From the NCBI RefSeq assembly GCF_001942465.1, contig NZ_MKJY01000333.1, forward strand, positions 56,471 to 120,470: a stretch of DNA of 64,000 bases, given 5' to 3'. This document shows, one piece after another, positions 38,172 to 58,568 of the stretch. The DNA is from Actinomadura sp. CNU-125 (lineage in GTDB: Bacteria; Actinomycetota; Actinomycetes; Streptosporangiales; Streptosporangiaceae). The notes beneath the pieces were generated by a model that worked only from the letters and a program-made list of their open reading frames with translations, made no database searches and was not told the origin of the DNA. Position numbers and translations under genes: made by a program. Each line of letters opens with the position of its first letter. Positions within the stretch are counted from its first letter, which is position 1.

Positions 38172-38534
38172 GGCATGCACCTCGTTCACGGCGTCGGCCG
38201 GAGAGAAAAGTCGGCGGGAGTCGGCTCGGCAGTAATCGGCACCTGCGGAGATTTGGAGATCCGGCGGAGGCCCATGACCGGGGCGTTTACCGCGTCGATT
38301 GGTTGACGGTCCGTACCGTACGACAGGCGCCCGATGGGCGCAAGAGGACGTACGGAGTCGCGCACCGATCCCATTTGGCAAAAGTTGTCCTTCTCAAGAT
38401 CGCCGCACGCGTGCACAATGGGCAACGTTCGGTGCGGCGCGGCGGGTTTGCCGTGGTCGGGCCATGTGGACCGGAGGTGACCGGCCGGCGATTCGGTATG
38501 TGGCGTGACATCCCGCTTGGGGGATTGGAGAGCC
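38172..38534. other. Divergent promoter region inside the cluster
   Basis: 363 bp without a gene, between the carrier protein (minus) and the acyl-CoA dehydrogenase (plus). It is noticeably less GC-rich than the surroundings. TTGACG (38303) is followed by the odd palindrome CGTAC-C-GTACG (38312-38322), a possible operator beside a -35 box. No regulator gene adjoins it, so a regulator elsewhere would be needed. Confidence 0.4.
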
Positions 38535-42146: not shown

Positions 42147-42185
42147 CCCAGGCGCACCACGAAGAAGACAACGGAAGGAGCGCCC

Positions 42186-44039
42186 GTGTGCGGCATCACC
42201 GGATGGGTCGACTGGACGCTGGATCTGCGGGGGCAGGGCCCCGTCATCACGGGCATGACGCGGACGCAGGCGCCGCGGGGGCCCGACGACGAGGGAACGT
42301 GGCTGTCGCGGCACGCCGCGTTCGGGCACCGGCGGCTCGCCGTGATCGACGTCGAGGGAGGGCGGCAGCCGATGACCCGGAACGGGCCCGGCGGCCGTCC
42401 GGTCGTCATCACGTTCAGCGGCGAGATCTACAACTTCCGGGAGCTGCGCGCGGAGCTGCGCTCGGCGGGCTGGTCGTTCGGCACCCGCTCGGACACTGAG
42501 GTGCTGCTGACGGCCTACCTGCAGTGGGGCCCGGACCTCGTCACACGGCTCAACGGGATGTACGCGTTCGCCGTGTGGGACGAGCAGGCCCGGCGACTGC
42601 TGCTGGTGCGGGACCGGCTCGGCATCAAGCCGCTCTACTACGCGCGGGTCGGCGACGGGATCGTCTTCGGCTCGGAGCCCAAGGCGCTGCTCGCCCATCC
42701 GCGGCTGAAGGCCGAGGTGGACCTCGAAGGGCTCGCCGAGCTGCTCGCCGTTCCGCGCGCGAGGACGCCCGGCCACGCCGTCTACCGGGGAATGCGGGAG
42801 CTGAAGCCGGGCTGCCTCCTCGTCGCCGACGCCTCCGGATGCCGCGAGAGCCGGTACTGGCAGGTGGAGGCGCGCCCCCACACCAAGGACTTCCGCACGA
42901 CGACGGCGGAGATCCGCTCCCTGCTCACCGACATCGTCGACCGCCAGATCGTCGCCGACGTGCCGGTCGGCACGCTGCTGTCCGGAGGGATCGACTCCAG
43001 CGCCATCACGGCCATGGCCGCCGGGAAGTTCACGGGGAAGCTGGCGAGCTACTCGGTGAGCGTCCCCGCGCCCGCCCGGCCGGGAAGCGACCTGTGGCGG
43101 CCGAGCCCGGACGAGCCGTACGCGCGGCTGGTCGCCGAACGGCTCGGCATCGAGCACTCGGTGGTCGAGGTCGGCACCGACGGGCTCGTCGAGGACATCG
43201 ACCGCGGACTGCGCGCGCGCGACCTGCCCGGCTGGGGCGACCTCGACGTCTCGATGTACCACCTGTTCCGGGGCGTCCGCGCGAACTGCACGGTGGCGCT
43301 GTCGGGGGAGTCCGCCGACGAGATGTTCGGGGGCTACACCTGGCAGACGGACGAGCGGTACGTGCGGCACACGTCGTTCCCGTGGATGTACGGGCGCCGT
43401 CAGCCGGAGGTCCTCCTCCGCGAGGAGGTGCGGCGCGCGATCCGCCCGGAGGTCTACGAGGCCGACCGCTACCGGGAGGCGCTGGCGGAGGTGCCGCGCC
43501 TCGAAGGCGAGGACCGCGCCGGACGCAGGCAGCGGGAGGTGTTCCATCTCGGCCTCACCCGGTGGCTGGGCGCGCTGCTGGACCGCAAGGACCGGATGAG
43601 CATGGCCGTCGGCCTCGAAGTGCGGGTGCCCTTCGCCGACCACCGGCTCGCCGAGTACCTGTTCAACGTCCCCGCGGACCTGAAAACCGGCGCCGGGACG
43701 GGGAGCGGGGGGACCGGAGGCGGCGGGATGGAGAAGGCGCTGCTGCGCCGGGCGTGCGGGGACCTCCTGCCGGACGAGATCGTCAACAGGCCCAAGAGCG
43801 CCTATCCGGCGAGTCGGGACCCTGGATACGTCGAGACGTTGAAGGAACTCGTCATCGAGACGATCGACGACCCGAACGCGCCCCTGTTCGACCTCATGGA
43901 CCGCGACAGGGTCCGCGAGGCGGTCACGTCCGGGCTGGACGCGCTGCCCGGCCCGATCACCGCCCGGACGTCCGCCATCGGGCTGTCCTACCTGCTCGAA
44001 CTGGACCGGTGGCTTTCCCGGGTCCGGGTCGTGGCGTGA
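42186..44039 (+). CDS. Asparagine synthase (glutamine-hydrolysing) family protein
   Basis: 617 residues, GTG 42186 after GAAGGAG. Cys2 (MCGITGWVDW) is the glutaminase nucleophile; GHRRLAVIDVEGGRQPM, ITFSGEIYNFRELRAEL and RDRLGIKPLYYARVGDG follow. The synthase domain has the PP-loop LLSGGIDSSAITAMAAGK, then VALSGESADEMFGGYTWQTD and DRKDRMSMAVGLEVRVPFAD. A Gly-rich insert (GAGTGSGGTGGGG, about residue 500) is unusual. In biosynthetic clusters such enzymes make amides, lactams or N-N bonds from carboxylates; with the ArgG-like gene it hints at amidation of an aspartyl or related group. Confidence 0.9.
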   Translation: MCGITGWVDWTLDLRGQGPVITGMTRTQAPRGPDDEGTWLSRHAAFGHRRLAVIDVEGGRQPMTRNGPGGRPVVITFSGEIYNFRELRAELRSAGWSFGTRSDTEVLLTAYLQWGPDLVTRLNGMYAFAVWDEQARRLLLVRDRLGIKPLYYARVGDGIVFGSEPKALLAHPRLKAEVDLEGLAELLAVPRARTPGHAVYRGMRELKPGCLLVADASGCRESRYWQVEARPHTKDFRTTTAEIRSLLTDIVDRQIVADVPVGTLLSGGIDSSAITAMAAGKFTGKLASYSVSVPAPARPGSDLWRPSPDEPYARLVAERLGIEHSVVEVGTDGLVEDIDRGLRARDLPGWGDLDVSMYHLFRGVRANCTVALSGESADEMFGGYTWQTDERYVRHTSFPWMYGRRQPEVLLREEVRRAIRPEVYEADRYREALAEVPRLEGEDRAGRRQREVFHLGLTRWLGALLDRKDRMSMAVGLEVRVPFADHRLAEYLFNVPADLKTGAGTGSGGTGGGGMEKALLRRACGDLLPDEIVNRPKSAYPASRDPGYVETLKELVIETIDDPNAPLFDLMDRDRVREAVTSGLDALPGPITARTSAIGLSYLLELDRWLSRVRVVA

Positions 44040-44044
44040 CGCCC

Positions 44045-44098
44045 CCGGCCACGCTCCCGTCCCCGGCCGCGCTCGCGCCCACGGCCGCGCTCCCGCCC
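44045..44098. repeat. Three imperfect 18-bp tandem repeats between converging genes
   Basis: Units start at 44045, 44063 and 44081, with consensus ccGGCCGCGCTCCCGCCC; each differs from it at one to four positions. They fill the gap between AsnB and the acyl-CoA ligase 3' ends, where a terminator would be expected, but form no clear stem. Confidence 0.6.
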
Positions 44099-44113
44099 AC
44101 GCCGCCGCCTCCG

Positions 44114-45751
44114 TCACTCCCGGGGGCGCCGCGCCGCTCGCGCGTAGCGCAGGCGCAGTTCCTCCTTGCGGGTCTTGCCCGTCGCGGTCGTCGGCAGGCC
44201 GTCGAGGAGTTCGAGGCGGCGAGGCCAGTACGCCTTGGTCATCCCGGCCTCGTCCAGCGCGCGCTGCAGTTCTTCGAGCGTGACGGGCGAGGCCCCGGCG
44301 ACCGGCGTCACCACCGCGCAGATCGTCTCGTCCTCGTGCTCGTCCGGGAGCCCGATGACCGCGACGTCGCGCACCCCGGGATGCCGGCCGATGATCGACT
44401 CCAGGTCGGTGACCGGCGCGATGTTCGCGTTGCGCAGGATCATGTCCTTGGCCCGGCCGGTGATCCGGATGCCGCCGCGGCCGTCGGGCCGGGCCAGGTC
44501 GCCGGTGTCGAACCATCCGTCCTCGTCGAGGTCGGCGGCGTACAGCTCGTCGCGCCGGTAGTAGCCGAGGCACTGCGTCGGCCCCTTCACCCACAGCACG
44601 CCCTCGTCCCCGGTCTCCTCCGACACGGGGTCGATGCGCAGCCGCATGTCGGAGATGGGGCTCCCGTCGCTGTGCGCGGCCCAGTCCGCCGGGTCGTCCG
44701 GACGGGTGATCGTCACGGGCCCGTTCTCCGTCATCCCCCACAGCGAGTACAGCCGGAGACCGAAGACGTCTGCGGTCTCGTCGATGAAGTACGGCGGGAT
44801 CGGCGCCGACCCGCTGACCAGCCAGGACAGGGCGGGCAGCGCGCGCGGCGCGGACCGCTGCTCGCGGATCAGGCTCAGCAGGTAGAAGGGCGCGCAGTAG
44901 AAGAACGTGACCCCGTGGGCGGCCATGAAGTCCAGGGCGTCGGCGGGTTCCTTGGCGTCCTGGAACGCCATGGTGGCGCCCAGTGCCAGCGGCATCAGCA
45001 TTCCCTGCACGACGCCGGTGTAGTGCGTGTACAGCGCGGTGGTGTACATGACGAGCGTCTCGTCGAGTCCGAACGTCCCGGCCTCGCCCCGAACGGCGGC
45101 GTACAGGGTGTTCTGGCTGTGCAGGACGCCCTTGGGGTCGCTGGTCGTGCCCGAGGTGAACAGCACGAGGTACGGGTCGTCGGGGCCGAGCTCCCGCGCG
45201 TCGAGCAGGTGTCCGTGCCGCTCCTCCCAGGCCGTCCCGAAGAAGAACGACTCGAACTCGCCGGTGCCCTCCGGGCCCGGGCCGTCGGCGACGAACACGC
45301 GCTCCAGGGACGGCAGCTCCGCGGCGAACTCGGCGCCGAGCTCGCCCAGCCGGTCGCCGTTGTCCTCGGCCATGGTGACGAGGACGCGCGCCTCGGTGAC
45401 GCGCAGCATGACGTCGAGCTCGCGGCGCCGGTAGGTCTTCATGAGCGGGCAGTACACGACCCCGGCCCGGATGCAGCCGAGGGTGAGCGCGGCGAGCTCC
45501 CACCTGTCGGTGAGCTGGGCCGCGAACACGTCCCCGGGGCGCAGCCCGAGTTCGACCAGCGCGCCCGCGCACCGGTCGGCCGCCGCGGCGAGCCGCTCGT
45601 AGTCGAGCCTGTGCTCCCGTCCGTCCGCCCGCCGCCGGGTGATCACCGCCGTTTTCCGCGGGGTGTCGCGCACATGCCGCCGGAGATCGTCGAGGAACGT
45701 CTCGTCCCGCCACCAGCCGCGCTCGCGGTGGCTCGCAGAGGTCGTGGTCAT
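44114..45751 (-). CDS. Acyl-CoA ligase / AMP-forming synthetase (cyclohexanecarboxylate-CoA-ligase-like)
   Basis: 545 residues, ATG 45751 after TGGAG. The AMP-binding core is LVLFTSGTTSDPKGVLHSQN, LYSLWGMTENGPVTITRPDD, DGWFDTGDLARPDGRGGIRI and the catalytic Lys region TTATGKTRKEELRLRYA. It starts with RERGWWRDETFLDDLRRHVR, which is shared almost exactly by the ligase at 58569. The two are paralogues in one cluster, on opposite strands. It probably activates an unusual acid as AMP ester or CoA thioester; no carrier domain is attached. Confidence 0.88.
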   Translation of the reverse strand: MTTTSASHRERGWWRDETFLDDLRRHVRDTPRKTAVITRRRADGREHRLDYERLAAAADRCAGALVELGLRPGDVFAAQLTDRWELAALTLGCIRAGVVYCPLMKTYRRRELDVMLRVTEARVLVTMAEDNGDRLGELGAEFAAELPSLERVFVADGPGPEGTGEFESFFFGTAWEERHGHLLDARELGPDDPYLVLFTSGTTSDPKGVLHSQNTLYAAVRGEAGTFGLDETLVMYTTALYTHYTGVVQGMLMPLALGATMAFQDAKEPADALDFMAAHGVTFFYCAPFYLLSLIREQRSAPRALPALSWLVSGSAPIPPYFIDETADVFGLRLYSLWGMTENGPVTITRPDDPADWAAHSDGSPISDMRLRIDPVSEETGDEGVLWVKGPTQCLGYYRRDELYAADLDEDGWFDTGDLARPDGRGGIRITGRAKDMILRNANIAPVTDLESIIGRHPGVRDVAVIGLPDEHEDETICAVVTPVAGASPVTLEELQRALDEAGMTKAYWPRRLELLDGLPTTATGKTRKEELRLRYARAARRPRE

Positions 45752-46060
45752 GGCTGCACTCCAGTTCTGCTCCGGCGGCGGGACGCGGTCGGCGGCGGAA
45801 TCGGCGCGTGCCCGCCCGTCCTTCCGGAAACGTGTCGCGATCAGTTTCGTGCGCTTCGATAACTGCGGGCCGGACCGCACGGAATTCGCTCGACAGGAGG
45901 GGCGCGTCTCCTGGAGCGGCCGTTGTGGACCGGGTAACGATAACTCAGAAGTGTCCGGTCGCCCACCGCGGCCTCCTGCCGATGCGGGAAACGATTCTGA
46001 CTGCGACGGAGATCAACATAACGTGTAACTCTTGGAACGTCACCACCTTCGGAGGTTCGA
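45752..46060. other. Divergent promoter region between the acyl-CoA ligase and the KAS III-like gene
   Basis: 309 bp without a gene. AT-richer stretches near 45835-45865 and 46010-46030 (ATCAACATAACGTGTAAC) may be the two promoters. No clear operator. Confidence 0.4.
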
Positions 46061-47115
46061 ATGCGTTGCGGTGATCTATTTCTTTCCGGCCTCGCGTACC
46101 GGCTGCCGCCCGCCGTGGACGTGGACGCCGCGGTCGCGGCCGGCCGGTACGACCCGGACGACCGGCGGGCGGACGCGTACGCCTCCGTCACCGTCGCCGC
46201 GGCGGACGAGGCCCCGCCGGAGATGGCCGCCGCCGCGGGCCGCCTGGCGCTCCGCCGGTCCGGGACGCCGCCGTCCGGCGTGGCCCTCCTCCTGCACGCT
46301 TCGGCGTGGTTCCAGGGCATCGACTACTGGCCGGCCGCCGCGTACGTCCACCGCGAGGTCCTGGGCGACGAGGGCCGCCGCGCGCCGCGCTGGACGTCCG
46401 GCAGATGTGCGCGGGCGCGCTGGGGGCGATGGAACTGGCCGCCTCCTACCTCGCCGCCGACGCCTCCCGCGGCTCCGCCCTGGTCACGACCGCCGACCGC
46501 TACGCCGACCCCGGGTTCGACCGGTGGCGCGGCGACGTGCGCGGCATCGTGTACGGCGACGGAGGGGCCGCCGCGGTGCTCGGCCGGACGGGGTTCGCGC
46601 GGCTGCTGGCCGTCTCGACGGTCGTGGACACCGGGCTCGAAGGCATGTACCGCGGCGGGGAGGAGTTCGCCGCGGCGCCCGGCCGTCCGGTGGACGTGCG
46701 CGCCCGCCGCGCGGCGTTCGCCGCGGGCCGGGCGGACCGGCCGGCGGGCTCGGGCGGCCGGTCCGTGGGAGAGCGGACGGCCGCCGGTCTCGCCGACGCC
46801 GTCGGCGGGACGCTGGAGGAGGCGGGCCTCAAGCTCGACGACATCGACAGGTTCGTCTTCCCCAACGTCGGCCTGCACGTGCTGCGGACGCGGTACGCCG
46901 AGCCGCTCGGACTGGACGTCGAGCGCACCGCCTGGGACTGGGGCCGCCGCACCGGGCACGTCGGGGCGGCCGACCAGCTCACCGGACTGACGCACCTGGT
47001 GGAGACCGGACGCGCGGCGCCGGGGGACCGCGTCCTGCTCGCCGGGATCGGCGCGGGATTCGCCTGGTCGTGCGCCGTGGTCGAGATCATCGGCCGCCCC
47101 TCCTGGACCGCCTGA
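46061..47115 (+). CDS. KAS III-like condensing/acyltransferase enzyme with altered active site, frameshifted as read
   Basis: About 351 residues, ATG 46061 after GGAGG. The thiolase fold is clear: LDVRQMCAGALGAMELAASY carries the nucleophile Cys, then VYGDGGAAAVLGRTGFARLL and DRVLLAGIGAGFAWSCAVVE. The usual HQAN and GNTSAA motifs are replaced: FVFPNVGLHVLR lacks the His at its normal place, and RRTGHVGAADQLTG has His for Asn. This pattern occurs in KAS III relatives that transfer an acyl group to O or N rather than form C-C bonds. One base is missing or added near 46388. Its partner could be one of the acyl-CoA ligases. Confidence 0.78.
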
Positions 47116-47267: not shown

Positions 47268-48170
47268 GTGAAAGTGCTTTACATCACCGGTTGGTGCCGT
47301 AGTGGCAGCACGATGCTGGGCAATGTCCTGGCAGAGGTTCCAGGCATCGTTCATGTGGGCGAGTTACGATTCCTCTGGCGCAATGGAGTGCTCGGCACGG
47401 GAAGCAACCGGCAGTGCGGCTGCGGCGCCGATCACCGCGACTGCCCCTTCTGGTCCGAAGTGCTGGAAGAGGTCCGGCCGGCCGGACGGTCCCTCGAACG
47501 GCACGCGGCCGACGTGGTGGCCTGGCAGGACGAGTGCCGCACCCGGCACACCTGGCGGGTGCTGCGCGCCGCGCCGCGCAACGGGTGGCCGGGGACGCTC
47601 GCCGCGACGTACCGCGCCATCGCCCGCGTCTCCGGCGCGGAAGTCATCGTCGACAGTTCCAAGTTCGCCTCCGACGCCGCGCTGCTGTCCAGGCTGCCGG
47701 GCGTCGAGGGACGTTACGTCCACCTCATCCGCGATCCGCGCGCGGTCGCCTGGTCGTGGGCACGGCCCAAGGCGTACACCGGGCACCGCTCCCCGCTGAA
47801 CAGCACGCTGCACTGGACCGGGTTCAACCTGGCCGCCGAGGCCGTCGGGCGGGCGCACCGGGAGGACTCGCTGCACATGCCGTACGAGGCCATGGCCGCC
47901 GGCCCGCGCGCCGCCGTGGACGCCGTTCTGGCGCTGCTCGGGCACGCCGGGCCCAACCCCGTCGGCGCGGACAAGACGGTCGAACTCGGCGGCAACCACA
48001 CGGTCACCGGGAACCCGAACCGGTTCGCCCGCGGCCGGACCGTCATCGAGGAGGACCGCCGGTGGCGGGCCGGGCCGCCCGGCCCGCGGCACGCCGCGGC
48101 CACGCTCCTCTCGCTTCCGCTGCTCCACCGCTACGGCTACCCGAAGGAAACGACTTGGACCTGGGACTGA
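47268..48170 (+). CDS. PAPS-dependent sulfotransferase-family protein
   Basis: 300 residues, GTG 47268 (the first start after an in-frame stop; GGAGGG lies 12 bases upstream). The 5'-phosphosulfate loop is LYITGWCRSGSTMLGNVLAE; the 3'-phosphate site is IVDSSKFASDAALL plus YVHLIRDPRAVAWSWARP; NHTVTGNPNRFARG is near the C-terminus. It is the first gene of the core operon, followed with 16-bp overlap by an SDR and then the shell protein. In azinomycin-type pathways sulfation makes a hydroxyl a leaving group for aziridine formation; that role here is inference from context. Confidence 0.85.
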   Translation: MKVLYITGWCRSGSTMLGNVLAEVPGIVHVGELRFLWRNGVLGTGSNRQCGCGADHRDCPFWSEVLEEVRPAGRSLERHAADVVAWQDECRTRHTWRVLRAAPRNGWPGTLAATYRAIARVSGAEVIVDSSKFASDAALLSRLPGVEGRYVHLIRDPRAVAWSWARPKAYTGHRSPLNSTLHWTGFNLAAEAVGRAHREDSLHMPYEAMAAGPRAAVDAVLALLGHAGPNPVGADKTVELGGNHTVTGNPNRFARGRTVIEEDRRWRAGPPGPRHAAATLLSLPLLHRYGYPKETTWTWD

Positions 48171-48940
48171 ACGGAAAGGTGGCCCTGGTCGCGGGAGGCT
48201 CCGCGGGCATCGGTCTCGCGATCGCCCGTGACCTGGTCCGCGAGGGCGCCACGGTGTCGATCGCGGGCCGCGACCCCGGCCGCCTGGCCAAGGCCCGTGA
48301 CGAACTCCTCGCCGAGCCGGACGCCGGTCCGGGGGCCGGGGTCGGCACCCGCGTACTGGACGTGCGCGACACCGCGGCGACGCGCGCCTGGGTCGACGAC
48401 GTCGCCGCCGAGCACGGCGCGGTGCACATCGTGGTCGCCAACGCGGGCGGGCCGCCCGCCGGGCCCACCGGCGCGTTCGGCCCGGACGAGTACCGCGCCG
48501 CGGTCGAACTGGGCATGATCGCCCACATCGCGTTCGTCCAGGCCGCGCTGCCGCACCTGCGCCGGGCCGGCTGGGGACGGATCCTCCTGGTCACCAGCGA
48601 GACGATCCGCGAGATCATCCCGAAGTTCGCGCTGTCGGGCATCGTCCGGCCGGGACTGATCGGCTACGCCAAGACGCTCGTGCACGAGCTGGGCCCCGGG
48701 GACGTCACCGTGAACGTGCTCGCCCCCGGGTACACCGCGACGGACGCCCTGCTCGCCGACCTGACCGGCGACCCCGAGGCGGAGACCGCCCGGGTCGCCG
48801 CCGAGGCCGGCATCCCGCTCGGCCGGGTGGCCCGCCCCGAGGAGGTCGCCGCCGCGGGAACGTTCCTGCTGAGCGCCCGCGCGAGCTTCGTCACCGGAAC
48901 CGTCCAGGTCGTCGACGGCGGCCGCTCCCTGGGGATGTGA
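48155..48940 (+). CDS. Short-chain dehydrogenase/reductase
   Basis: 261 residues, TTG start at 48155 with GAAGGAA upstream, overlapping the sulfotransferase end. The cofactor loop is VALVAGGSAGIGLAIARDL; VVANAGGPPAGP is the NAG motif; LLVTSETIREIIPKFALSG holds the Ser; NVLAPGYTATDALL and GTVQVVDGGRSLGM close the fold. The canonical YxxxK is not seen: the helix reads SGIVRPGLIGYAKTLVHEL, as in the subgroup with Asn/Arg in place of the Tyr. It may reduce or epimerise the ketone made by the transketolase step. The next gene, the shell protein, starts three bases after its stop. Confidence 0.85.
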   Translation: MDLGLNGKVALVAGGSAGIGLAIARDLVREGATVSIAGRDPGRLAKARDELLAEPDAGPGAGVGTRVLDVRDTAATRAWVDDVAAEHGAVHIVVANAGGPPAGPTGAFGPDEYRAAVELGMIAHIAFVQAALPHLRRAGWGRILLVTSETIREIIPKFALSGIVRPGLIGYAKTLVHELGPGDVTVNVLAPGYTATDALLADLTGDPEAETARVAAEAGIPLGRVARPEEVAAAGTFLLSARASFVTGTVQVVDGGRSLGM

Positions 48941-48943
48941 TCC

Positions 48944-49783
48944 ATGTCGGACGTGCACATGCTGCTGGACGACCCCGAACTGACGCGGCGCAGCCCGGGG
49001 GAGGAGTTCGCCCTCGCCCACGCCCGGCACGGACCGGACGCGCGGGTCGAGCTGCGCGCGTCCATCAGCGACCTGTTCCCGCCCGCGAAGCGCCGCCCCC
49101 GCCTCACCGTCCGGCACCTGCTCCGCAAGGCCGTGGTGGACGCCGACGAGGTCGTCGTCTTCACCGAGCGGGCCGAGAACACCAAGCCGGACGACGCCGC
49201 CCCCGAGTGGGAGTTCGAGGTGGGCGCCGCGACGGTGCGGACGCAGCGGATCAGCGCGTCCGTCCCGGTGCCGGAGGAGATCCTCGCCGACCCGGCGGCG
49301 CTGGCCGCGTTCGTCGACTACCGCCTGCTCGTCCGGCTCGGCACGGCGGAGAACGACGTGCTGCTCAACGGGACCGGCCCGATCCGCGGCCTGCTCCGGA
49401 ACCCGGGGCTGCGGCACCGCCCGTCCGAGCCGGGGGACGGCGGGTCGCCCGCCCGCGCGCTGCTGGCGACGGCGGCGCTGTGCGAGTGGTACGGCGGGTC
49501 GGCCGACGGGATCGTCGTGCACCCGGACGACTGGTGGCCGCTGATCGAGGACGGCGCGTTCCTCGAACGGCTCGCCGTCCAGGGCGTCAAGGTGAGCCGC
49601 ACCCGCATGGTGCCGCCGGGCACGGCGCTCGTCGGCGACTTCACCGCCGCCGCGACGCTGCTGGACCGCCGCTCGTCGGTGCTCCGGCTGGACGGCGGCG
49701 CGCTGGTCGCCGAGATCCACGAGGGACTCGCCGTCCACCTGCCGGGGCACTTCGTGCTCGCCGCGCTGCCGGGCGGAGCCTGA
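48944..49783 (+). CDS. HK97-fold shell protein, encapsulin-like (natural-product encapsulin type)
   Basis: 279 residues. The HK97 gp5 landmarks run in order. The E-loop region is at 72-97 (VVFTERAENTKPDDAAPEWE). The spine and A-domain strands follow at 98-112 (TVRTQRISASVPVPEEI), then the spine helix with LADPAALAAFVDYRLLVRLG (114-133), TAENDVLLNGTGPIRGLLRN (134-153), DGIVVHPDDWWPLIED (188-203), and VSRTRMVPPGTALVGDFTAA with a late strand (217-248). These match phage major capsid proteins and encapsulins. No portal, terminase, protease or tail gene is near; both neighbours are biosynthetic enzymes on the same transcript (3-bp gap to the SDR stop, TGATG overlap with transketolase). It therefore probably builds a nanocompartment enclosing one or more cluster enzymes. 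The shell size and cargo are unknown, and no recognised cargo tag was seen. Confidence 0.88.
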   Translation: MSDVHMLLDDPELTRRSPGEEFALAHARHGPDARVELRASISDLFPPAKRRPRLTVRHLLRKAVVDADEVVVFTERAENTKPDDAAPEWEFEVGAATVRTQRISASVPVPEEILADPAALAAFVDYRLLVRLGTAENDVLLNGTGPIRGLLRNPGLRHRPSEPGDGGSPARALLATAALCEWYGGSADGIVVHPDDWWPLIEDGAFLERLAVQGVKVSRTRMVPPGTALVGDFTAAATLLDRRSSVLRLDGGALVAEIHEGLAVHLPGHFVLAALPGGA

Positions 49784-50633
49784 TGGGGGCGCCCGCGCCG
49801 GTGGACCTGGCGGCGACGGCCCACCGGGTCCGCGAGCACATCGTCGGGATGTGCGGCGGGCCGGAGGGCGGCCATCTCGGCGGGTCGATGTCGCTGGTGG
49901 AGATCCTCACCGTCCTCTACTTCGAGGTCATGCGGATCGACCCGCGCCGTCCCGCCGCGGCGGACCGGGACGTCCTCGTCCTCGGCAAGGGGCACGGCGC
50001 CATGTGCCTGTACGGGGTGCTGGCCGAGCGCGGCTTCTTCCCCGTCGCGGAGCTGGCCGAGTACGCCCGGCCGGGCAGCAGGCTGATGGGCCATCCGGTC
50101 CGCGCCGTCCCGGGGGTGGAGATGCCCACCGGGTCGCTTGGGCACGGGCTCGCGCTCGCCAACGGGTTCGCGCTCGCCGACCGGGGCCGCCGCTGCTTCG
50201 CCGTCCTCGGCGACGGCGAGCTGCAGGAGGGCTCGGTGTGGGAGGCGGCCATGGCCTCCGCCGCGCTCGGGCTCGGCAACCTGACGGCCGTCATCGACCG
50301 GAACCGCCTGCAGATCACCGGCCCCACCGAGGACGCGATCGGCCTGGAGCCGCTCGCGGACCGTTGGCGGAGTTTCGGCTGGACGGTGCGGGAGGCGGAC
50401 GGCCACGACTTCGCCGCCCTGCGCGAGGCGCTCGCCCGCGACGCGTCCGGGACGAACGGGAGCGCCGCGCGCCGCGGCGGGGCCCCGGTGGCCGTCATCG
50501 CCCACACGGTGAAGGGGCGCGGGCTCCCGTCGGTCGAGGCGAAGACCCGCAGTCACTACGCGAAGCTGAGCGGCCGCCAGGCCGACCGGTCCCTGGCCGT
50601 GCTGCGCACCGGCGCCGGAGGGAGGCCCCGTGA
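49783..50633 (+). CDS. Transketolase N-terminal subunit (thiamine-diphosphate domain)
   Basis: About 283 residues, ATG 49783 overlapping the shell-protein stop (TGATG). The start is typical (VREHIVGMCGGPEGGHLGGS). GHGAMCLYGVLAERGFF, then LMGHPVRAVPGVEMPTGSLG with GHGLALANGFALADRG, and the ThDP/Mg motif GDGELQEGSVWEAAMASA with NRNRLQITG-type Asn (IDRNRLQITG) follow. As read the frame misses its stop and runs on; adding one C to the CCCC at 50625-50628 gives a stop at 50631-50633 that overlaps the next GTG, matching the other junctions. Split transketolases in carrier-protein pathways add a two-carbon unit to the semialdehyde on the carrier. Confidence 0.9.
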
Positions 50634-51721
50634 CCGCCGACGCGACGGGACGTGCGGACCGCGCGAACGGTGCACGCGGCGCCCGTCCGGACGAGCGCCC
50701 GGGCGAGGGCCGGGCACCGGCCGTCCGGCCGCGGTCGGCGCGGGAGGCGTACCGCGACCTGCTGCCCGGGCTGATGCTCGCCGACGAGCGGCTCTACTGC
50801 CTCGACAGCGACACCGGGCTGTTCGACCGGGACGCCTTCGCCGCCGTGTCCGGCCGGTACCTCAACCTCGGCATCGCCGAGCACAACCTGATGGGGACGG
50901 CCGCGGGGCTCGCCGCGAGCGGCCGGATGCCGTTCGTCACCACGATGGCCACCTTCGCGGCCACCCGCGCGCTCGAATTCATCAAGATCGACATCGCGTA
51001 CAACGCGCTGCCCGTCCGCATCGTGGCCACCCACGGCGGGCTGGCCGCCGGGCACCTGGGACCGACCCACCACGCGCTGGAGGACCTCGGCATCATGCGG
51101 ATGCTGCCGGGCTTCACCGTGGTCGTCCCGGCCGACGCGCGGCAGGCGGAGGAGGCGGTCCGGCAGAGCCTGGCGCTGCCCGGGCCCGTCTACATCCGGC
51201 TCGGCCGCGGCGCCACCCCGGACCTGGACGGCGGACGGCCCGCGGCCGCCCCGTTCGAGATCGCCCCGTTCGAGATCGGCCGGGCCCAGTGGCTGCGGCC
51301 GCCCGGCGACGTGGCGATCATCGCGTGCGGGCCGCATCCGGTGCTGGCCGCGCTGCGCGCCGCGGACCTGCTGGACGCGCGCGGCGTGCGGGCGGCCGTG
51401 CTCAACGTGCACACGCCGCACCCGCTCGACGCGGACGCGGTCCTGGCGGCGGCCGCGGGCACCCGGGGCGTCGTCACCGTCGAGGAGCACTGGCGCACGG
51501 GCGGGCTCGGCGGCGCCGTCGCCGAGACGCTGGCCGAGCGCGCGCCCGTCCGGGTGGCGCGTATCGGCATGCCCGCCACGTTCGCCGAGCGGGCGGGCGA
51601 CCAGGAGCACCTGCTCGACCGGTACGGCATCACGGCCGACGCGGCCGTCGCCGCGGCACTGAAGCTGTTCGGCGGAACCCATGGAGGTGGTACGGATGAC
51701 CCTTGCCTGTCCCGAGTGTGA
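50630..51721 (+). CDS. Transketolase C-terminal subunit
   Basis: 363 residues, GTG 50630. The pyrimidine-binding domain has RYLNLGIAEHNLMGTAAGLA with the catalytic Glu in GIAEHN, TTMATFAATRALEFIKIDIA and THGGLAAGHLGPTHHALEDL; the C-terminal domain has VAIIACGPHPVLAALRAADL and VVTVEEHWRTGGLGGAVAET. An N-terminal extension of about 40 residues is Ala/Arg-rich. Together with the preceding subunit it forms the complete enzyme. Its last 26 bases overlap the carrier-protein gene. Confidence 0.9.
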   Translation: MTADATGRADRANGARGARPDERPGEGRAPAVRPRSAREAYRDLLPGLMLADERLYCLDSDTGLFDRDAFAAVSGRYLNLGIAEHNLMGTAAGLAASGRMPFVTTMATFAATRALEFIKIDIAYNALPVRIVATHGGLAAGHLGPTHHALEDLGIMRMLPGFTVVVPADARQAEEAVRQSLALPGPVYIRLGRGATPDLDGGRPAAAPFEIAPFEIGRAQWLRPPGDVAIIACGPHPVLAALRAADLLDARGVRAAVLNVHTPHPLDADAVLAAAAGTRGVVTVEEHWRTGGLGGAVAETLAERAPVRVARIGMPATFAERAGDQEHLLDRYGITADAAVAAALKLFGGTHGGGTDDPCLSRV

Positions 51722-51863
51722 GGGCCCGGTGCGGCTCGCCGAGCCGGTCCGGATGAGCGAGATCGCCCAGTGCGCGGACTGCTCCAGCGAACTAGAGGTG
51801 ATCGGCCTGGATCCGGTGACGCTCGAACTCGCCCCCGAGATCGAGGAGGACTGGGGAGAGTGA
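51696..51863 (+). CDS. lysW: LysW-type amino-group carrier protein (AmCP)
   Basis: 55 residues from ATG 51696, chosen over ATG 51681 because GGAGGTGG sits five bases before it. A zinc ribbon is formed by Cys5/Cys8 (CPEC) and Cys26/Cys29 (CADC). The C-terminus is EIEEDWGE: the EDWGE motif ends in the Glu whose gamma-carboxyl holds the amino group of the substrate in lysine/arginine biosynthesis and in some specialised metabolites. Its neighbours, LysX, ArgC-like, ArgB-like and LysK, are the exact enzymes that act on such a carrier. The gene is easily missed because it is so short. Confidence 0.95.
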   Translation: MTLACPECEGPVRLAEPVRMSEIAQCADCSSELEVIGLDPVTLELAPEIEEDWGE

Positions 51864-52815
51864 GGCCGGTGGCCGTGCTCGCCTCCCGCGTCCGGTACGA
51901 GGAGAAACGCATCTTCGCCGCCCTGGAGCGCCGCGGGGTCGCCTACGCGCACGTCGACACCCGCCGGTTCTGCGACGAACTCGGCGCCGAACCGGGCGGC
52001 GAACCGGGCGCCGGGCCGGCCGTGGGCGGCGGTTCCGGGTACGCGGCGGCGCTGAACCGGGAGATCTCCCACAGCCGCGCCCTGTACGCGTCGCTGCTGC
52101 TTGAGGCCCGCGGCGTCCCGACCGTCAACACCTCCGAGACCATCACCGTTTGCGGCGACAAGCTGCGGACCTCGCTGCTGCTGCGGCGCGCCGGGGTGCC
52201 CGTCCCGCGCACCGCGGTCGCGCTCGCCCCGGAGGCGGGCGCCGACGCCGCCGAACGGCTGGGCTTCCCGGTCGTGGTCAAGCCGCTGGCGGGTTCCTGG
52301 GGACGGCTGGTCGCGGCCGTCCACGACCGGGACCAGGCGGAGACCGTCCTGGAGCATCGGGCCGCCCTGCCGACGCCGCAGCAGCACATCGTCTACCTGC
52401 AGGAACTCGTCGACAAGCCGGGCCGTGACGTCCGGGTGATCGTGGCCGGGGACGAGGCGGTCGGCGCGACCTACCGCTACTCGGACGGCTGGCGGACCAA
52501 CGCCGCCCGGGGCGCGCGGTCGGTGCCGTGCCCGCTCACCCCGGACCTGGCCGGGCCGGCGCGCGCGGCCGCCCGCGCCGTGGGCGGCGGCGTGCTGGGC
52601 GCGACCTGGTCGAAAGCCCCGGCGGGCCGCTCGTCCTGGAGGTGAACCACGCCGTCGAGTTCCGGGGGTTCCAGGACGCGCACGGCGACGCCGTCGACGT
52701 GGCCGACGCGATCGTCGCGCACCTACTGGACGCGGCGTCCCGCGACGGCGCGGGCCCCGAGCCGCCGACCGCGGCCGGGGCGACGGCGGGCGCGCGGCGC
52801 GGGGAGGCGACGTGA
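51860..52815 (+). CDS. LysX-like ATP-grasp ligase loading the carrier protein, frameshifted as read
   Basis: About 318 residues, GTG 51860 overlapping the carrier stop (GTGA). RimK-type ATP-grasp motifs: VNTSETITVCGDKLRTSLLL, RAGVPVPRTAVAL, PVVVKPLAGSWGRLVAAVHD, YLQELVDKPGRDVRVIVAGD, and LVLEVNHAVEFRGFQDAHG for metal binding. A missing base near 52607 breaks VLG-VDLVESPGGPLVLEVN. The enzyme forms an amide between the carrier's terminal Glu and the alpha-amino group of glutamate, aminoadipate or a related amino acid. Which one cannot be told here. A C-terminal Ala/Gly-rich tail is longer than in LysX. Confidence 0.88.
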
Positions 52816-53819
52816 TCCGCGTCGGCGTCATGGGCGCCGCCGGATACCTGGGCGGCGAACTGCTGCGGCTGCTGCTGGGGCACCCCGGGGCGACGGTCGC
52901 GCAGGCCGTCTCCACCCGCTTCCCGGGCCGCCGCGCCGACTCCGTCCACCCCAACCTGCGCGGCCAGACCGACCTGGTGTTCACGGCGCCGGACGAGCTG
53001 GACACCTGCGACGTGCTGCTGACCGCCACGCCGCACCGGGCCGCCATGACGCTGCTGCCCGAGGTGCGGGGACGGGCGGGCACGGTCATCGACCTCTCCG
53101 GGGACTTCCGGAACCCCGACCCCGCGGTGTACGAGCGGTACTACGGCGTCCCGCACGCCGCTCCCGAACTGCTCGGCGCGTTCGTCCCCGGCATCCCCGA
53201 GCTGTACCGCGCCGAGCTGGCCGGGGCCGACCTCATCAGCGTGCCGGGGTGCGCGGCCACCGCCGCGACCCTCGCCCTGCTCCCGCTGGCCGGGCTGGTC
53301 CGGCCGGACGTGCAGATCGACGCGCGCACGGGATCGAGCGGCTCCGGGGCGCGCGCCGGAGCCGCCAACCTGCACGCCGAGCGCAGCGGGGCGATGCGGG
53401 TGTTCGCCCCGGTGCGGCACCGGCACGAGGCGGAGGTGTCCCGGCTGACCGGACTGGACGCCCGGATGACAGCCACCGGGATCGAGGCCGTGCGCGGGGT
53501 GCAGGTCGTGTGCCACGCCACGGGGACGTCCGACGAGAAGACGCTCCGCCGCGCCTACCGCGAACGCTACGCGGACGAGCCGTTCGTCCGGGTCGTCGCC
53601 CACCGGACGGGCGCGCACCGGCTGCCCGATCCGAAGCTGCTGTCCGGGTCGAACTTCTGCGACGTCGGCTTCGCGGTGGACGGCGACCGGATCACCGCGA
53701 TCGCGGCCCTGGACAACCTCGTGAAGGGTGGTGCGGGCGCCGCCGTGCAGTGCCTCAACATCCGCGCGGGCGAGCCCGAGACCCTGGGCCTGGGGTTCCC
53801 CGGCCTGCATCCCGTCTGA
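52812..53819 (+). CDS. LysY/ArgC-like carrier-bound acyl-phosphate reductase
   Basis: 335 residues, GTG 52812 (GTGA overlap). The NADP motif is RVGVMGAAGYLGGELLRLLL; the nucleophile Cys is in LISVPGCAATAATLALLPLA; GTSDEKTLRRAYRERYADEP and LLSGSNFCDVGFAVDGDRIT with LDNLVKGGAGAAVQCLN complete the ArgC fold. It should reduce the phosphorylated side chain to the semialdehyde, the substrate for the transketolase. No frameshift. Confidence 0.92.
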   Translation: MIRVGVMGAAGYLGGELLRLLLGHPGATVAQAVSTRFPGRRADSVHPNLRGQTDLVFTAPDELDTCDVLLTATPHRAAMTLLPEVRGRAGTVIDLSGDFRNPDPAVYERYYGVPHAAPELLGAFVPGIPELYRAELAGADLISVPGCAATAATLALLPLAGLVRPDVQIDARTGSSGSGARAGAANLHAERSGAMRVFAPVRHRHEAEVSRLTGLDARMTATGIEAVRGVQVVCHATGTSDEKTLRRAYRERYADEPFVRVVAHRTGAHRLPDPKLLSGSNFCDVGFAVDGDRITAIAALDNLVKGGAGAAVQCLNIRAGEPETLGLGFPGLHPV

Positions 53820-54619
53820 TGGGCGTCACGGTGGTGAAGTGCGGCGGCGCGGTGCCGCCCGGGCCGGTGTGCGCGGACCTCGCCGGTCTCGCGGGCCGGG
53901 TCGTCCTCGTCCACGGCGGCGGCCCGGAGGTCGACGCGCTGGCGGGGGAGCTGGGCGTGCCCGCCCGCACCCTCGTGTCGCCGAGCGGCGTGACCAGCCG
54001 CCACACCGACCCCGCCATGCTGGAGGTGGTCACCCTCGCCCTCGCGGGACGGGTCAAGCCGCGGCTGCTGCGCGCCCTCGCGGCGTCCGGCGTCCCGGCG
54101 GCCGGGCTGACCGGCCTCGACGGCGGGCTGCTGCGGGCGCGGCGCAAACCCGCGCAGCGCACCGTCCGGGACGGCCGCACCGTGCTCGTCCGGGACGACC
54201 ACAGCGGGCGCCTCACCGGCGTGCGGCCCCGGGTGCTGCGGGTGCTGCTCGACGCCGGGTTCGTCCCGGTGGTGTCGCCGCCCGCCCTGGGCGAGGACGG
54301 CTTGCCGGTGAACGTGGACGCCGACCGGGTCGCGGCGGCGGTGGCGGGCGCGCTCGGCGCCGAGCGGCTGGTCCTGCTGACCTGCGCCCCCGGCCTGCTG
54401 CGCGACGCGGCCGACGAGGCCACCGTGCTGGACCGCTGCGCGCTGGCCCCGGACGGTCCGGTGCCGTACGCGGCGAGCGGCGGAATGCACCGCAAGCTCA
54501 TCGCCTCCCGCGAGGCCCTGCTCGCCGGCGTCCCCCGGGTCTCGGTCTGCGACGGGCGCGCGCCCCGTCCGGTCACCGCGGCCCTGGACGGCGCCGGCAC
54601 GACCCTGGAGATCACATGA
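53819..54619 (+). CDS. LysZ/ArgB-like carrier-bound amino-acid kinase
   Basis: 266 residues, ATG 53819 (TGATG overlap). The kinase fold shows VVKCGGAVPPGPV, then VVLVHGGGPEVDALAGELGV, SGVTSRHTDPAMLEVV, and VNVDADRVAAAVAGALGAE with ASGGMHRKLIASREALLAGV. It phosphorylates the side-chain carboxylate of the carrier-bound amino acid. The first lysine-rich loop (normally xKxGG) reads VVKCGG, so the catalytic Lys is present. Confidence 0.92.
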   Translation: MGVTVVKCGGAVPPGPVCADLAGLAGRVVLVHGGGPEVDALAGELGVPARTLVSPSGVTSRHTDPAMLEVVTLALAGRVKPRLLRALAASGVPAAGLTGLDGGLLRARRKPAQRTVRDGRTVLVRDDHSGRLTGVRPRVLRVLLDAGFVPVVSPPALGEDGLPVNVDADRVAAAVAGALGAERLVLLTCAPGLLRDAADEATVLDRCALAPDGPVPYAASGGMHRKLIASREALLAGVPRVSVCDGRAPRPVTAALDGAGTTLEIT

Positions 54620-55657
54620 TCACGCCCGTCGATCTGCTGCACGCCATGCTGGACATCCCGTCGCCGTCCGGCCGCGAGGACGAGCTGGCGCGCTTCCTCG
54701 AGAAGACGATGAACGACCTCGGCATGGCCGCGTACCGCGACGAGGCCGGCAACGTGATCGGCGACATCGGCACCGGGAGGGGGCCGGTGGTGATGCTGCT
54801 GAGCCACCTCGACACCGTCGACCGGCCGCTCCCGGCGCGCCGCGACGGCGACCGGCTGGTGGGCCGGGGCGCCGCGGACGCCAAGGGCCCGCTCGCGGCG
54901 ATGATCAGCGCGGCGGCGGCGAGGCCGCGCCCCCGGCACGATCCGGGTCGCCGGGGCGGTCGAGGAGGAGCGGCTCTCGCGGGGCGGCGAGCACCTGGCG
55001 CGCACCGTCGCGCCGCCCGACGCGCTGCTGGTGGGGGAGCCGAGCGGCTGGTCGCGGGTCGTGCTGGGCTACAAGGGCAAGATCGACATCGGGTACCGGG
55101 TGACGCGCCCCGCGACGCACTCCACCAATCCCGTGCCGAAGGCCACCGAGGTCGCGGCGGGATTCTGGCGCGACCTGCTGGACGAGCTCGGCCCCGAAGC
55201 GGGCCACGGCGCGGGCCACGGCGCGTTCGGGACGCCCGCGGCGACCCTGCGCGGCGTCCGCGGCGACCTCACCGAGGCCGTGCTCGACATCGACTGCCGG
55301 GTCCCTCCCGGGTTCGACGTCGACGACCTGGTCGCGCGGCTGCGCGCGTGCGCGAACGGCGGCGAGATCACCGTCGTCCGGTACATCCCCGCCGTGCGCC
55401 GCGACCGGTCCGACCCGGTCGTCCGCGCGGTCACGACGGCGATCCGGCGGCACGGCGGCAGGCCGCGGCCGACCCTCAAGACCGGCACGTCCGACATGAA
55501 CACCGTGGCCCCCCACTGGAACGTGCCGATGGCGACGTACGGCCCCGGCGACAGTTCCCTGGACCACGCCGACGACGAGCACATCGAGATCGGCGAGTAC
55601 CTGCGGGGCGTCGACGTGCTCACCGCGACCCTCGACGAACTCGCCGCCGCGCTGTGA
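54616..55657 (+). CDS. LysK-like M20 peptidase releasing the product from the carrier, frameshifted as read
   Basis: About 347 residues, ATG 54616 (ATGA overlap). M20 metal sites: VVMLLSHLDTVDRPL (His-x-Asp), LVGRGAADAKGPLAAM (Asp), and a Glu pair (VAGAVEEERLSRGGEHLA). The first frame ends near 54930 in a CCCCC run; the rest (IRVAGAVEEE, LLVGEPSGWSRVVLGYKGKI, TLKTGTSDMNTVAPHWNVPM) is in another. LysK cleaves the amide between the product's amino group and the carrier's terminal Glu. It is the last gene of the tightly overlapping block. Confidence 0.9.
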
Positions 55658-55724: not shown

Positions 55725-57269
55725 ATGCACCTGACCCACATCGTTCATCGGGCCCTGCAGCTCGCCCCGGACGAGCCGGTCACGGCCTACGGCGACCGGT
55801 TCCGCACGGCGCGCGAGCAGGCCGACCGGGTGGCCCGCCTCGCCGGAGCGCTGCGGGAGCGCGGGGTGCGCGACGGCGAACACGTGGGGATGCTCGCCCT
55901 CGGCTCGGACCGCTACATCGAGTTCTTCCTGGCCGTGGCGTGGGCGAACGGGGTGTTCCACCCGGTCAATCCCGCGTGGAGCACGGGAGAGATGATCTAC
56001 GCGCTGGCCGAGTCCCGGACGGAGATCCTCTTCGTCGACGACGCGTTCCTCGATCGGCTGGCGGAGATCAGGGCGGCGTGCCCCGATCTGCGCGAGGTCG
56101 TCCACGTCGGCGACGGGCCGCCGCCGTCCGGAATGCCCGGATTCGAGGGGCTGATCGCGGGCACGGAACCGGTCGAGGACGCCCGCCGGGGCGGCGAGGC
56201 CCCGGCCGGCGTCGTCTACACCAGCGGGACGACCGGACGCGCCAAGGGCGTCGTGGTAAGCCACGCCGGGCTCGTCCACCAGGCGCTGATCCTCCCGGCG
56301 AGGGTCCCGTGCCACGGGAAAACCGGCGGGCGCATCCTGATCACGTCGAACTTCTCCTCCATCTCCATGCTGGTCACCTGGCTGATCCAGGGGATGTGGG
56401 GCGGGCTCACCGTCGTCCCGCGGACGACCGCCGTCGACGGGCTCGTCGACGCCATCGAACGCCACGGGGTCACCCACGCGCCGTTCGCGCCCGGCACGAT
56501 GCAGCAGATCGTCGACCGTCCGGACATCGCGGCGCGCGACCTGTCCAGCGTGCTGAGCATCGCCTACGGCGCGGCGCCCATCACCGAGGCGCTGCTGACC
56601 AGGGTGATGAAGGCGTTCCCCAACGCCGCCTTCCACCAGTGGTACGGCATGAACGAGTTCGGTCTCGCCACGCTGCTGCCGCCGGAGGACCACCGCGCGG
56701 GCCGCAAGCTGCGGTCGGCCGGGCGGCCCGCGCTCGGCGCCGAGGTACGGCTCGTCGACGACGCGGGCGCGGACGTGCCGCGCGGCGGGGTCGGGGAGAT
56801 CATCGTCCGCACCGGCGCGATGATGCTCGGCTACCTGAACAAGCCCGAGGAGACCGCGCGGACCGTCCGGGACGGGTGGGTCCGCACCGGCGACGGCGGA
56901 TACCTGGACGACGACGGCTACGTCTTCATCGTCGACCGGATCAAGGACGTGATCAACGTGGACGGCTGGAACGTCTACTCCACCGAGGTGGAGCAGGCGA
57001 TCGCGGCCCATCCCGCCGTGGCCGCCGTCGCGGTGATCGGCGTCCCCGACGACAAGCCGGGCGAGAAGGTGCACGCGGTCATCGTGCTCAAGCACGGCCG
57101 TACCGCGAGCGAGGAGGACATCCGGCGGCACTGCGAGCCGTTGATCGCCTGGAAGACTCCCACCAGTTGCGAGTTCGTCGACGCCCTCCCCCTGTCGACC
57201 ACCGGGAAGGTCCTCAAACGCGAACTCCGCGAGCCGCACTGGGCGGGAATGGACCGCCAGGTCAACTGA
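55725..57269 (+). CDS. Acyl-CoA ligase / AMP-forming synthetase
   Basis: 514 residues, ATG 55725 with CGGAGGA. Motifs: GVVYTSGTTGRAKGVVVSHA, YGMNEFGLATLLPP, DGWVRTGDGGYLDDDGYVFI, DRIKDVINVDGWNVYSTEVE, and the catalytic Lys TTGKVLKRELREPHWAG. It differs from the paired ligases at 44114 and 58569 and is nearer to medium-chain or long-chain acyl-CoA ligases. It may activate a fatty or aromatic side chain that is attached to the amino-acid core. Confidence 0.85.
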   Translation: MHLTHIVHRALQLAPDEPVTAYGDRFRTAREQADRVARLAGALRERGVRDGEHVGMLALGSDRYIEFFLAVAWANGVFHPVNPAWSTGEMIYALAESRTEILFVDDAFLDRLAEIRAACPDLREVVHVGDGPPPSGMPGFEGLIAGTEPVEDARRGGEAPAGVVYTSGTTGRAKGVVVSHAGLVHQALILPARVPCHGKTGGRILITSNFSSISMLVTWLIQGMWGGLTVVPRTTAVDGLVDAIERHGVTHAPFAPGTMQQIVDRPDIAARDLSSVLSIAYGAAPITEALLTRVMKAFPNAAFHQWYGMNEFGLATLLPPEDHRAGRKLRSAGRPALGAEVRLVDDAGADVPRGGVGEIIVRTGAMMLGYLNKPEETARTVRDGWVRTGDGGYLDDDGYVFIVDRIKDVINVDGWNVYSTEVEQAIAAHPAVAAVAVIGVPDDKPGEKVHAVIVLKHGRTASEEDIRRHCEPLIAWKTPTSCEFVDALPLSTTGKVLKRELREPHWAGMDRQVN

Positions 57270-57328
57270 CCGCACCCCCAGGTCGTCCCCGGCAAGTACA
57301 TCGGAACGTCCCGCTCCGGAGGTTTGAT

Positions 57329-58512: not shown

Positions 58513-58568
58513 TGCCGCGGGGCGCGGCGACCGAATCCGACGTTCGAGGCGAACCATGGAGGTACGGG

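What the first reader, a model, noticed from the sequence alone, without database searches (positions are those of the whole stretch)
48944..49783. HK97-fold encapsulin-like shell gene inside a carrier-protein biosynthetic operon
The 279-residue protein has, in order, the E-loop, A-domain strands, spine helix and P-domain patterns of HK97 capsid proteins (TVRTQRISASVPVPEEI, NDVLLNGTGPIRGLLRN, MVPPGTALVGDFTAA), yet no other phage gene is nearby. It is locked in an operon with a sulfotransferase, SDR, transketolase and an amino-group carrier protein. Natural-product (family 3) encapsulins have been described bioinformatically, from memory of the literature; their cargo and chemistry are largely untested. 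This locus would be a distinct example in which a reactive or toxic intermediate may be made inside a protein shell.
Basis: partly seen in the sequence, partly recalled or inferred. Interest (0 to 1): 0.95.

Follow-up and report, generated by a model that had tools for sequence, protein, structure and literature searches.

The report
Capsid-like shell protein in biosynthesis operon
Inside a gene cluster for an unknown natural product, this actinomycete carries a gene for a virus-capsid-like shell protein of an already described family; in the genomes compared it sits beside the same kind of sulfotransferase and nearly always the same unusual dehydrogenase-like enzyme, so a sulfate-activated ring-forming step likely takes place with or inside a protein shell.

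Summary
ORF 48944-49783 (+) encodes a 279-aa predicted HK97-fold protein scoring 295 bits (cut-off 180) for NCBI's family 3 encapsulin model; no phage gene adjoins it. The kind is known: Andreas & Giessen (2021) described 132 family 3 encapsulins in clusters with sulfotransferases, SDRs and carrier proteins, and proposed reaction vessels. The window is a new member.

Added here: the shell gene, one sulfotransferase clade and one SDR clade behave as a portable unit. Of 63 GTDB loci, 63 have the sulfotransferase and 60 the SDR, while upstream modules change (carrier/transketolase 33, DegT aminotransferase 19, never both). Carrier/transketolase and, in another class, a GriI-type aldolase would each build a seven-carbon 2-amino-6-oxo acid, the frame of the pipecolate in chloromyxamide, the one family 3 product known in 2021. 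The 'SDR' has Ser/Arg for the catalytic Tyr/Lys in 61 of 61 sequences. I infer that the unit sulfates and cyclises such a C7 amino acid and that a shell confines this step.

Untested: assembly, cargo (apparent targeting tags look like gene-overlap artefacts), chemistry, product. DegT-type clusters (19 of 63) stay unexplained.

The parts
48944..49783 (+). family 3 encapsulin shell-type protein, 279 aa
   Evidence: NF041188 295 bits, PF05065 35 bits; HK97-fold model pLDDT 90.1
47268..48170 (+). sulfotransferase of the clade linked to the shell gene
   Evidence: PF13469 35.3 bits against 27; model pLDDT 91.0, best PDB folds olefin synthase and curacin sulfotransferase domains; present at 63 of 63 loci
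48155..48940 (+). atypical SDR-family protein (Ser/Arg in place of catalytic Tyr/Lys)
   Evidence: PF13561 145 bits; Ser-Ser-Arg in 61 of 61 sequences: 57 by script, 4 read by eye from its printout; present at 60 of 63 loci
49783..50640 (+). transketolase N-half (end uncertain: this frame runs on to 51699 in the draft sequence)
   Evidence: PF00456 129.5 bits
50630..51721 (+). transketolase C-half
   Evidence: PF02779, PF02780; split transketolase 6yaj best in PDB
51681..51866 (+). LysW-type amino-group carrier protein, ends EDWGE
   Evidence: TIGR01206 57.1 bits against 53.2; sequence
51864..52816 (+). LysX-type ATP-grasp ligase, split across two frames in this draft
   Evidence: TIGR00768 192 bits in the first piece, TIGR00768/TIGR02144 weak match in the second
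52812..53819 (+). LysY/ArgC-type reductase
   Evidence: TIGR01850 310 bits
53816..54619 (+). LysZ-type kinase
   Evidence: NF010659 [LysW]-aminoadipate kinase 228.6 bits against 223
54616..55657 (+). LysK-type [LysW] hydrolase, split across two frames in this draft
   Evidence: NF003367 194 bits (below its cut-off) for the C-terminal piece; N-terminal piece seen only
55725..60173 (+). AMP-dependent ligase, ArgG-related protein (split across frames), second AMP-dependent ligase
38505..47115 (.). upstream cluster genes: PigA/RedW-like acyl-CoA-dehydrogenase-type protein, AMP-dependent ligase, esterase, AsnB, reverse-strand ligase, KAS III (split across frames)

Best explanation
The gene encodes a family 3 (natural-product) encapsulin shell-type protein with a predicted HK97 fold that is kept together with one kind of sulfotransferase and one atypical SDR, and the three likely form a unit in which a seven-carbon amino acid would be sulfated and then cyclised with or inside a predicted protein shell. 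Shown here: family membership, the linkage of the three genes, invariant nucleotide-binding motifs in the sulfotransferase alignment, and loss of the SDR Tyr/Lys pair. Inferred, in order: (1) LysX/Z/Y-type enzymes make Glu semialdehyde on the carrier protein; (2) the split transketolase adds two carbons, giving a 2-amino-5,7-dihydroxy-6-oxoheptanoyl chain; (3) no aminotransferase was seen among the cluster genes annotated, so after release by the LysK-type hydrolase the alpha-amine itself would close on C6 to a piperidine (pipecolate) ring; (4) the sulfotransferase puts sulfate, as a leaving group, on C7 (or C5), and the SDR, lacking the usual catalytic residues, acts at C6 or in the ring-forming displacement; (5) the shell keeps this electrophile away from the cell until a ligase takes the product on.
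For: Membership. Linkage: sulfotransferase 63 of 63 and SDR 60 of 63 GTDB loci, while the carrier/transketolase module is at 33 and DegT at 19, never both; in 65 genomes of the genus 31 of 32 shell loci have the close sulfotransferase within about 6 kb; in 394 genomes of the class all 8 close sulfotransferases lie within 4 kb of a shell gene; module type changes at least 10 times on the shell tree. Two genomes with carrier/transketolase genes but no shell also lack this sulfotransferase and SDR. Sulfate supply genes CysD/CysN/CysC lie at 21/20/15 of 63 loci. Nearest folds of the sulfotransferase are the olefin synthase and curacin domains, recalled to use sulfate as a leaving group. C7 frame: transketolase adds C2 to Glu semialdehyde in azinomycin, where a sulfate is displaced to an aziridine (PMC9570651, passages); GriI joins C4 and C3 (PMC8697445, passages), and GriI-type aldolase with aspartate kinase replaces the carrier module in another class; chloromyxamide holds 6-chloromethyl-5-methoxypipecolate. 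The shell gene is under purifying selection (dN/dS 0.21-0.47, 5 comparisons).
Against: No evidence of assembly or of any cargo; no shared targeting tag was found. The SDR lacks Tyr/Lys, so the published idea of plain ketone reduction, and part of step 4, is weakened. One genome has a close relative of the SDR (78% identical) with no shell or sulfotransferase within 9 kb. L029 and L057 lack a detected SDR and were not followed up. DegT-type clusters, 19 of 63, are not explained by the C7 scheme. Tyrosylprotein sulfotransferases match the sulfotransferase model almost as well as the leaving-group ones. The product is unknown; the Myxococcus chloromyxamide cluster was not examined. The GTDB scan used two motifs of this clade, so the sample is biased.
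Confidence: 0.42

Rival explanations
1. The shell stores or shields the finished reactive product and hosts no enzyme; sulfotransferase and SDR are simply the steps that make that kind of product.
For: No cargo tag was found on any partner; linkage to the chemistry fits equally well.
Against: Encapsulins as defined in PMC8346489 (abstract) load enzymes; nothing here bears directly on product storage.
Confidence: 0.2
2. The protein keeps the HK97 fold but no longer forms a closed shell; it is a scaffold or a partner subunit of the sulfotransferase or SDR.
For: Assembly cannot be read from a monomer model; strict one-to-one linkage with two enzymes would suit an obligate complex; conserved N-terminal and HLPxHF stretches in the 28-sequence alignment could be contacts.
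Against: Full-length fold with E-loop-like strands and long helix, aligned over most of HK97 and encapsulin subunits.
Confidence: 0.2
3. The shell encloses the transketolase / carrier-protein steps and confines the aldehyde or ketone made there, as proposed in 2021.
For: The transketolase start overlaps the shell stop in the window; PMC8346489 section 9 suggests aldehyde or ketone sequestration.
Against: 30 of 63 loci lack the carrier/transketolase module, and two genomes have the module without shell.
Confidence: 0.1
4. It is a capsid gene left over from a prophage, a passenger without function in the cluster.
For: PF05065 and phrog_10 major head protein matches.
Against: No phage head, packaging or tail gene among the neighbours searched; 104 phage records match, all under 60% identity and none covering 80% of the query in one place; no relative in a motif scan of viral contigs; conserved company and purifying selection.
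Confidence: 0.02

Closest known systems
Family 3 'natural product' encapsulins (Andreas & Giessen 2021, PMC8346489; NCBIfam NF041188)
   Same: Sequence model, PF05065 match, place in a cluster with sulfotransferase, SDR and amino-group carrier protein
   Different: Nothing in the shell protein itself; the carrier/transketolase class is covered by the paper's AmCP clusters. New here are the linkage counts, the SDR active-site change and the shared C7 frame
HK97 gp5 major capsid protein
   Different: About 21% identity; 279 aa against 385 for the gp5 precursor; no packaging genes
Azinomycin / vazabitide carrier-protein pathways
   Same: Carrier protein (vazabitide), kinase, reductase, transketolase; sulfation before ring closure (PMC9570651 passages)
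   Different: No aminotransferase seen among the annotated window genes; a shell gene and this SDR clade are present. AziU2/U3-type ring-forming enzymes (recalled) could not be searched for
GriI/BagB-type aldolase pathways
   Same: Used in another family 3 class in place of the carrier module
   Different: Not in the window; GriH partner (PF01959) found in only 2 of 5 genomes of that class, outside the fetched loci

Membership tests
Family 3 encapsulin | passes the curated sequence model NF041188 | tested here: met
   295 bits against 180, positions 1-266 of 266
Family 3 encapsulin | HK97 fold | tested here: met
Family 3 encapsulin | lies in a biosynthetic cluster (sulfotransferase, SDR, AmCP), not in a prophage | tested here: met
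Family 3 encapsulin | self-assembles into an icosahedral shell | not testable with these tools
   monomer model only
Family 3 encapsulin | dedicated cargo loading | tested here: inconclusive
   no shared terminal tag on ST, SDR, ligase, ACAD, DegT, LysX or transketolase; candidates look like gene-overlap artefacts
Azinomycin/vazabitide-type DADH pathway | carrier protein or N-acetyl Glu, kinase, reductase, transketolase | tested here: met
Azinomycin/vazabitide-type DADH pathway | aminotransferase that makes the second amine | tested here: inconclusive
   none among the annotated genes of 38505-60173; DegT type absent from all 33 carrier-module loci; other aminotransferase classes were not searched for
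Classical SDR oxidoreductase | catalytic Ser-Tyr-Lys (YxxxK) | tested here: not met
   Ser-Ser-Arg in 61 of 61; the 5 nearest PDB relatives printed share Ser/Arg
Prophage major capsid | phage head, packaging or tail genes adjoining | tested here: not met
   none among 10 neighbours in PHROGs or among those in Pfam/NCBIfam

The most novel reading that the evidence does not exclude
The encapsulin/sulfotransferase/SDR unit is a sulfate-displacement nanocompartment: the atypical SDR, with an invariant Glu beside its Ser and an Arg where Lys should be, has become a non-redox cyclase that expels sulfate, and it works inside the HK97 shell to make a strained 1-azabicyclo[4.1.0]heptane (an aziridine fused to pipecolate), of which the chloromethyl group of chloromyxamide is the chloride-opened trace.
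Probability: 0.1. Interest if true: 0.92.

Novelty: new member of a known kind. Interest (0 to 1): 0.52.

Why it matters
What family 3 encapsulins do is open. The linkage data name two near-constant partners (sulfotransferase, SDR), set aside carrier protein and transketolase as constant ones, and point to one substrate frame (a C7 2-amino-6-oxo acid), so the role of a virus-like shell in natural product chemistry becomes testable with three genes. If true, this would be a protein shell built around a sulfate-activated cyclisation of the kind that makes DNA-alkylating warheads.

Tried and rejected
Cargo tags. (a) The transketolase C-half ends in a conserved GGGTDDPDLSRV-like stretch in the Actinomadura clade; it overlaps the carrier-protein start and its ribosome site, so its conservation needs no tag. 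(b) Sulfotransferase ends WTWD/WTSD coincide with the SDR start (MDLGL) read in another frame; I checked this on the window's DNA and infer it for the others. (c) LWPGE(L/V/F)(R/W)-like ends in 4 Streptomyces sulfotransferases (L045, L050, L053, L055) may partly reflect the SDR's ribosome site; their DNA was not checked, and the window clade lacks them. No other shared extension caught my eye in the termini printed for ligase, ACAD, DegT, LysX, transketolase and shell; this was by eye, without a statistic.

Prophage reading: see rivals; phage and plasmid records hold only distant capsids (104 phage records, 1 plasmid record).

AlkZ-type self-resistance (PF06224): 8 matches on 6 other contigs of the genome, none on the window's contig.

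GriH (PF01959) in 5 genomes of the aldolase class: none in 3, one match each in 2, outside the fetched loci.

Searches of the open-licence library for work on family 3 encapsulins (listings) gave PMC8346489, one 2021 review (PMC8229669, listing only) and papers in passing; chloromyxamide search listed 9 papers, of which only PMC8346489 was opened. Subscription papers and preprints are mostly not held, so absence there shows little.

Full report

SURROUNDINGS. The window lies on contig C333 of a 603-contig draft genome, 88% complete; its nearest named protein relatives are from Actinomadura. Gene order around the ORF: KAS III, sulfotransferase, SDR, shell, split transketolase, LysW-type carrier, LysX, LysY, LysZ and LysK types, AMP-dependent ligase, ArgG-related protein, AMP-dependent ligase; upstream AsnB, esterase and further ligases. 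Sulfotransferase, SDR, shell and transketolase genes overlap or lie 3 nt apart, so they are probably translated together. None of 10 neighbours matched a phage head, packaging or tail family. In phage records 104 match, all under 60% identity and none covering 80% of the query in one place; a two-motif scan of viral contigs gave no relative.

ALREADY KNOWN. Andreas & Giessen 2021 (PMC8346489; outline, passages and the whole of section 9 seen) describe 132 family 3 encapsulins in six cluster classes, name sulfotransferases, SDRs and AmCPs as common neighbours, and propose that shells sequester reactive aldehydes or ketones. The closest protein, 94% identical, from A. rifamycini, is already named family 3 encapsulin. 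In the genus 28 of 65 genomes carry the family over its cut-off, at 32 loci; in an even draw from the class 9 of 394 do, the window's own genome among them. The window is a new member of a known kind.

WHAT THE SHELL TRAVELS WITH. A scan of GTDB genomes with the 28-sequence alignment A1 gave 64 loci; I dropped one weak Chloroflexi match (L065) and used 63. The scan used two motifs of this clade, and some loci are cut by contig ends, so it is neither an even nor a complete sample. In these 63, within up to 10 kb, the sulfotransferase is found in 63, the SDR in 60 (missing in L029, L057 and L064; L064 ends near a contig edge, the other two were not followed up), the carrier/LysY module in 33, a DegT aminotransferase in 19; the last two never occur together, and 11 loci have neither. 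On the shell tree the module type needs at least 10 changes (quick tree, 20 of 60 inner branches weak, long branches flagged).

CONTROLS. In 65 genomes of the genus, 31 of 32 shell loci have a close sulfotransferase (E 1e-68 or better) within about 6 kb on the same contig; the 32nd (G032:C10) begins 398 bases from a contig end. Of 34 such sulfotransferases, 31 are the same pairs; G013 and G030 are cut by contig ends where the shell gene would lie, and G032:C20 is probably the other half of the G032:C10 pair, which I did not check. In 394 genomes of the class, the 8 sulfotransferases above 230 bits all sit within 4 kb of a shell gene; the next best (192 bits) is in a genome without one; the ninth shell gene lies 792 bases from a contig end. 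That search scored only six candidates per genome. Of 31 SDR-clade hits in the genus (E 1e-45 or better), 27 lie near a shell gene on the same contig, G013, G030 and G041 lie at contig ends, and one (G063:C9) stands alone, with no shell or sulfotransferase within 9 kb; only 40 candidates per genome were scored, so second copies are undercounted. Two genomes (G014, G025) carry carrier and transketolase genes without shell, this sulfotransferase or this SDR. The near-constant partners are the sulfotransferase and the SDR.

THE TWO PARTNERS. In 28 aligned sulfotransferases the GxxRxGxT and RDxR motifs are invariant (their role in PAPS binding is recalled). The model (pLDDT 91.0) matches best the sulfotransferase domains of olefin synthase and of curacin biosynthesis (E 1.1e-6 each), which I recall to use sulfate as a leaving group; human tyrosylprotein sulfotransferase follows closely (4.5e-6), so this is a lead, not a proof. 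The SDR has Ser at the Tyr position and Arg at the Lys position in 61 of 61 sequences (60 loci and the window): 57 by pattern, four read by eye from the script's printout. The five nearest PDB relatives printed share Ser/Arg but not the Glu that follows the first Ser here. So the module's SDR may not be an ordinary reductase, which also weakens the simple ketone-reduction step.

CHEMISTRY, INFERRED. In azinomycin biosynthesis a transketolase adds two carbons to a protected Glu semialdehyde, an aminotransferase follows, and a sulfate is displaced to close an aziridine; the carrier-protein version is known from vazabitide (PMC9570651, passages). The window has the first part on a carrier protein and no aminotransferase among the genes annotated. 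In another class of family 3 loci aspartate kinase (5 loci) and a GriI-type aldolase (4 loci called; that of L062 scores 301 bits, cut-off 241, for the hept-6-ulosonate synthase subfamily) lie directly upstream of the shell gene instead. GriI joins aspartate semialdehyde (C4) to dihydroxyacetone phosphate (C3) (PMC8697445, passages; PMC6692506, passages); the structure of its C7 product is recalled. Both modules would give a 2-amino-6-oxoheptanoate with oxygen at C5 and C7. Chloromyxamide, the only studied product of a family 3 cluster in 2021, contains 6-chloromethyl-5-methoxypipecolate: nitrogen on C6, oxygen on C5, a substituent on C7. Three lines thus point to one frame. I infer that the unit sulfates C7 (or C5) and that ring closure or displacement follows. 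DegT-type clusters, 19 of 63, are not explained by this.

ROLE OF THE SHELL. No tag for cargo loading was found; the tempting ones look like products of overlapping genes. Purifying selection (dN/dS 0.21-0.47 in five comparisons, simple counting method) shows a working gene. That the shell confines the sulfated or cyclising intermediate is the reading I hold most likely, at about 0.42 for the whole chain; membership in family 3 I hold at about 0.97.

Noticed in passing
L028 6936-9641 (-) and the six other loci of its class (L029, L035, L041, L047, L056, L058): A LanM-type lanthipeptide synthetase (TIGR03897, 436 bits, for L028) lies next to the shell gene, with DegT aminotransferase and sulfotransferase nearby: 7 of 63 loci, all Actinomadura.
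   Followed up: partly
window 46061-47115, 49783-51699, 51864-52816, 54616-55657, 57300-58512: Several cluster genes (KAS III, transketolase N-half end, LysX, LysK, ArgG-related) change frame within the gene in this draft genome; single longer frames exist for KAS III and LysX in A. rifamycini (L002), so sequencing or assembly error is likely. The shell gene is intact.
   Followed up: partly
window 38505-39506: A PigA/RedW-like acyl-CoA-dehydrogenase-type protein (332 bits, below the model's cut-off of 500) begins the cluster region, hinting at a prolyl- or aminoacyl-carrier oxidation.
   Followed up: no
L084, L085 (genomes G014, G025): Carrier-protein/transketolase clusters without shell gene carry instead a different sulfotransferase-like ORF (named by eye), a very long AMP-binding ORF and two acyl-CoA-dehydrogenase-like ORFs.
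   Followed up: no
L094 8961-9737 (genome G063): A lone relative of the shell-linked SDR, 78% identical to the window's, without shell or sulfotransferase gene within 9 kb.
   Followed up: partly
L031, L033, L060 (Dyella): Compact operon DegT, shell, sulfotransferase, SDR, methyltransferase-like gene, then a large AMP-binding (NRPS-like) ORF; a possible source of a methoxy group as in chloromyxamide.
   Followed up: partly
genomes G005, G032, G042, G064: Four genomes of the genus carry two family 3 shell loci each above the cut-off.
   Followed up: no
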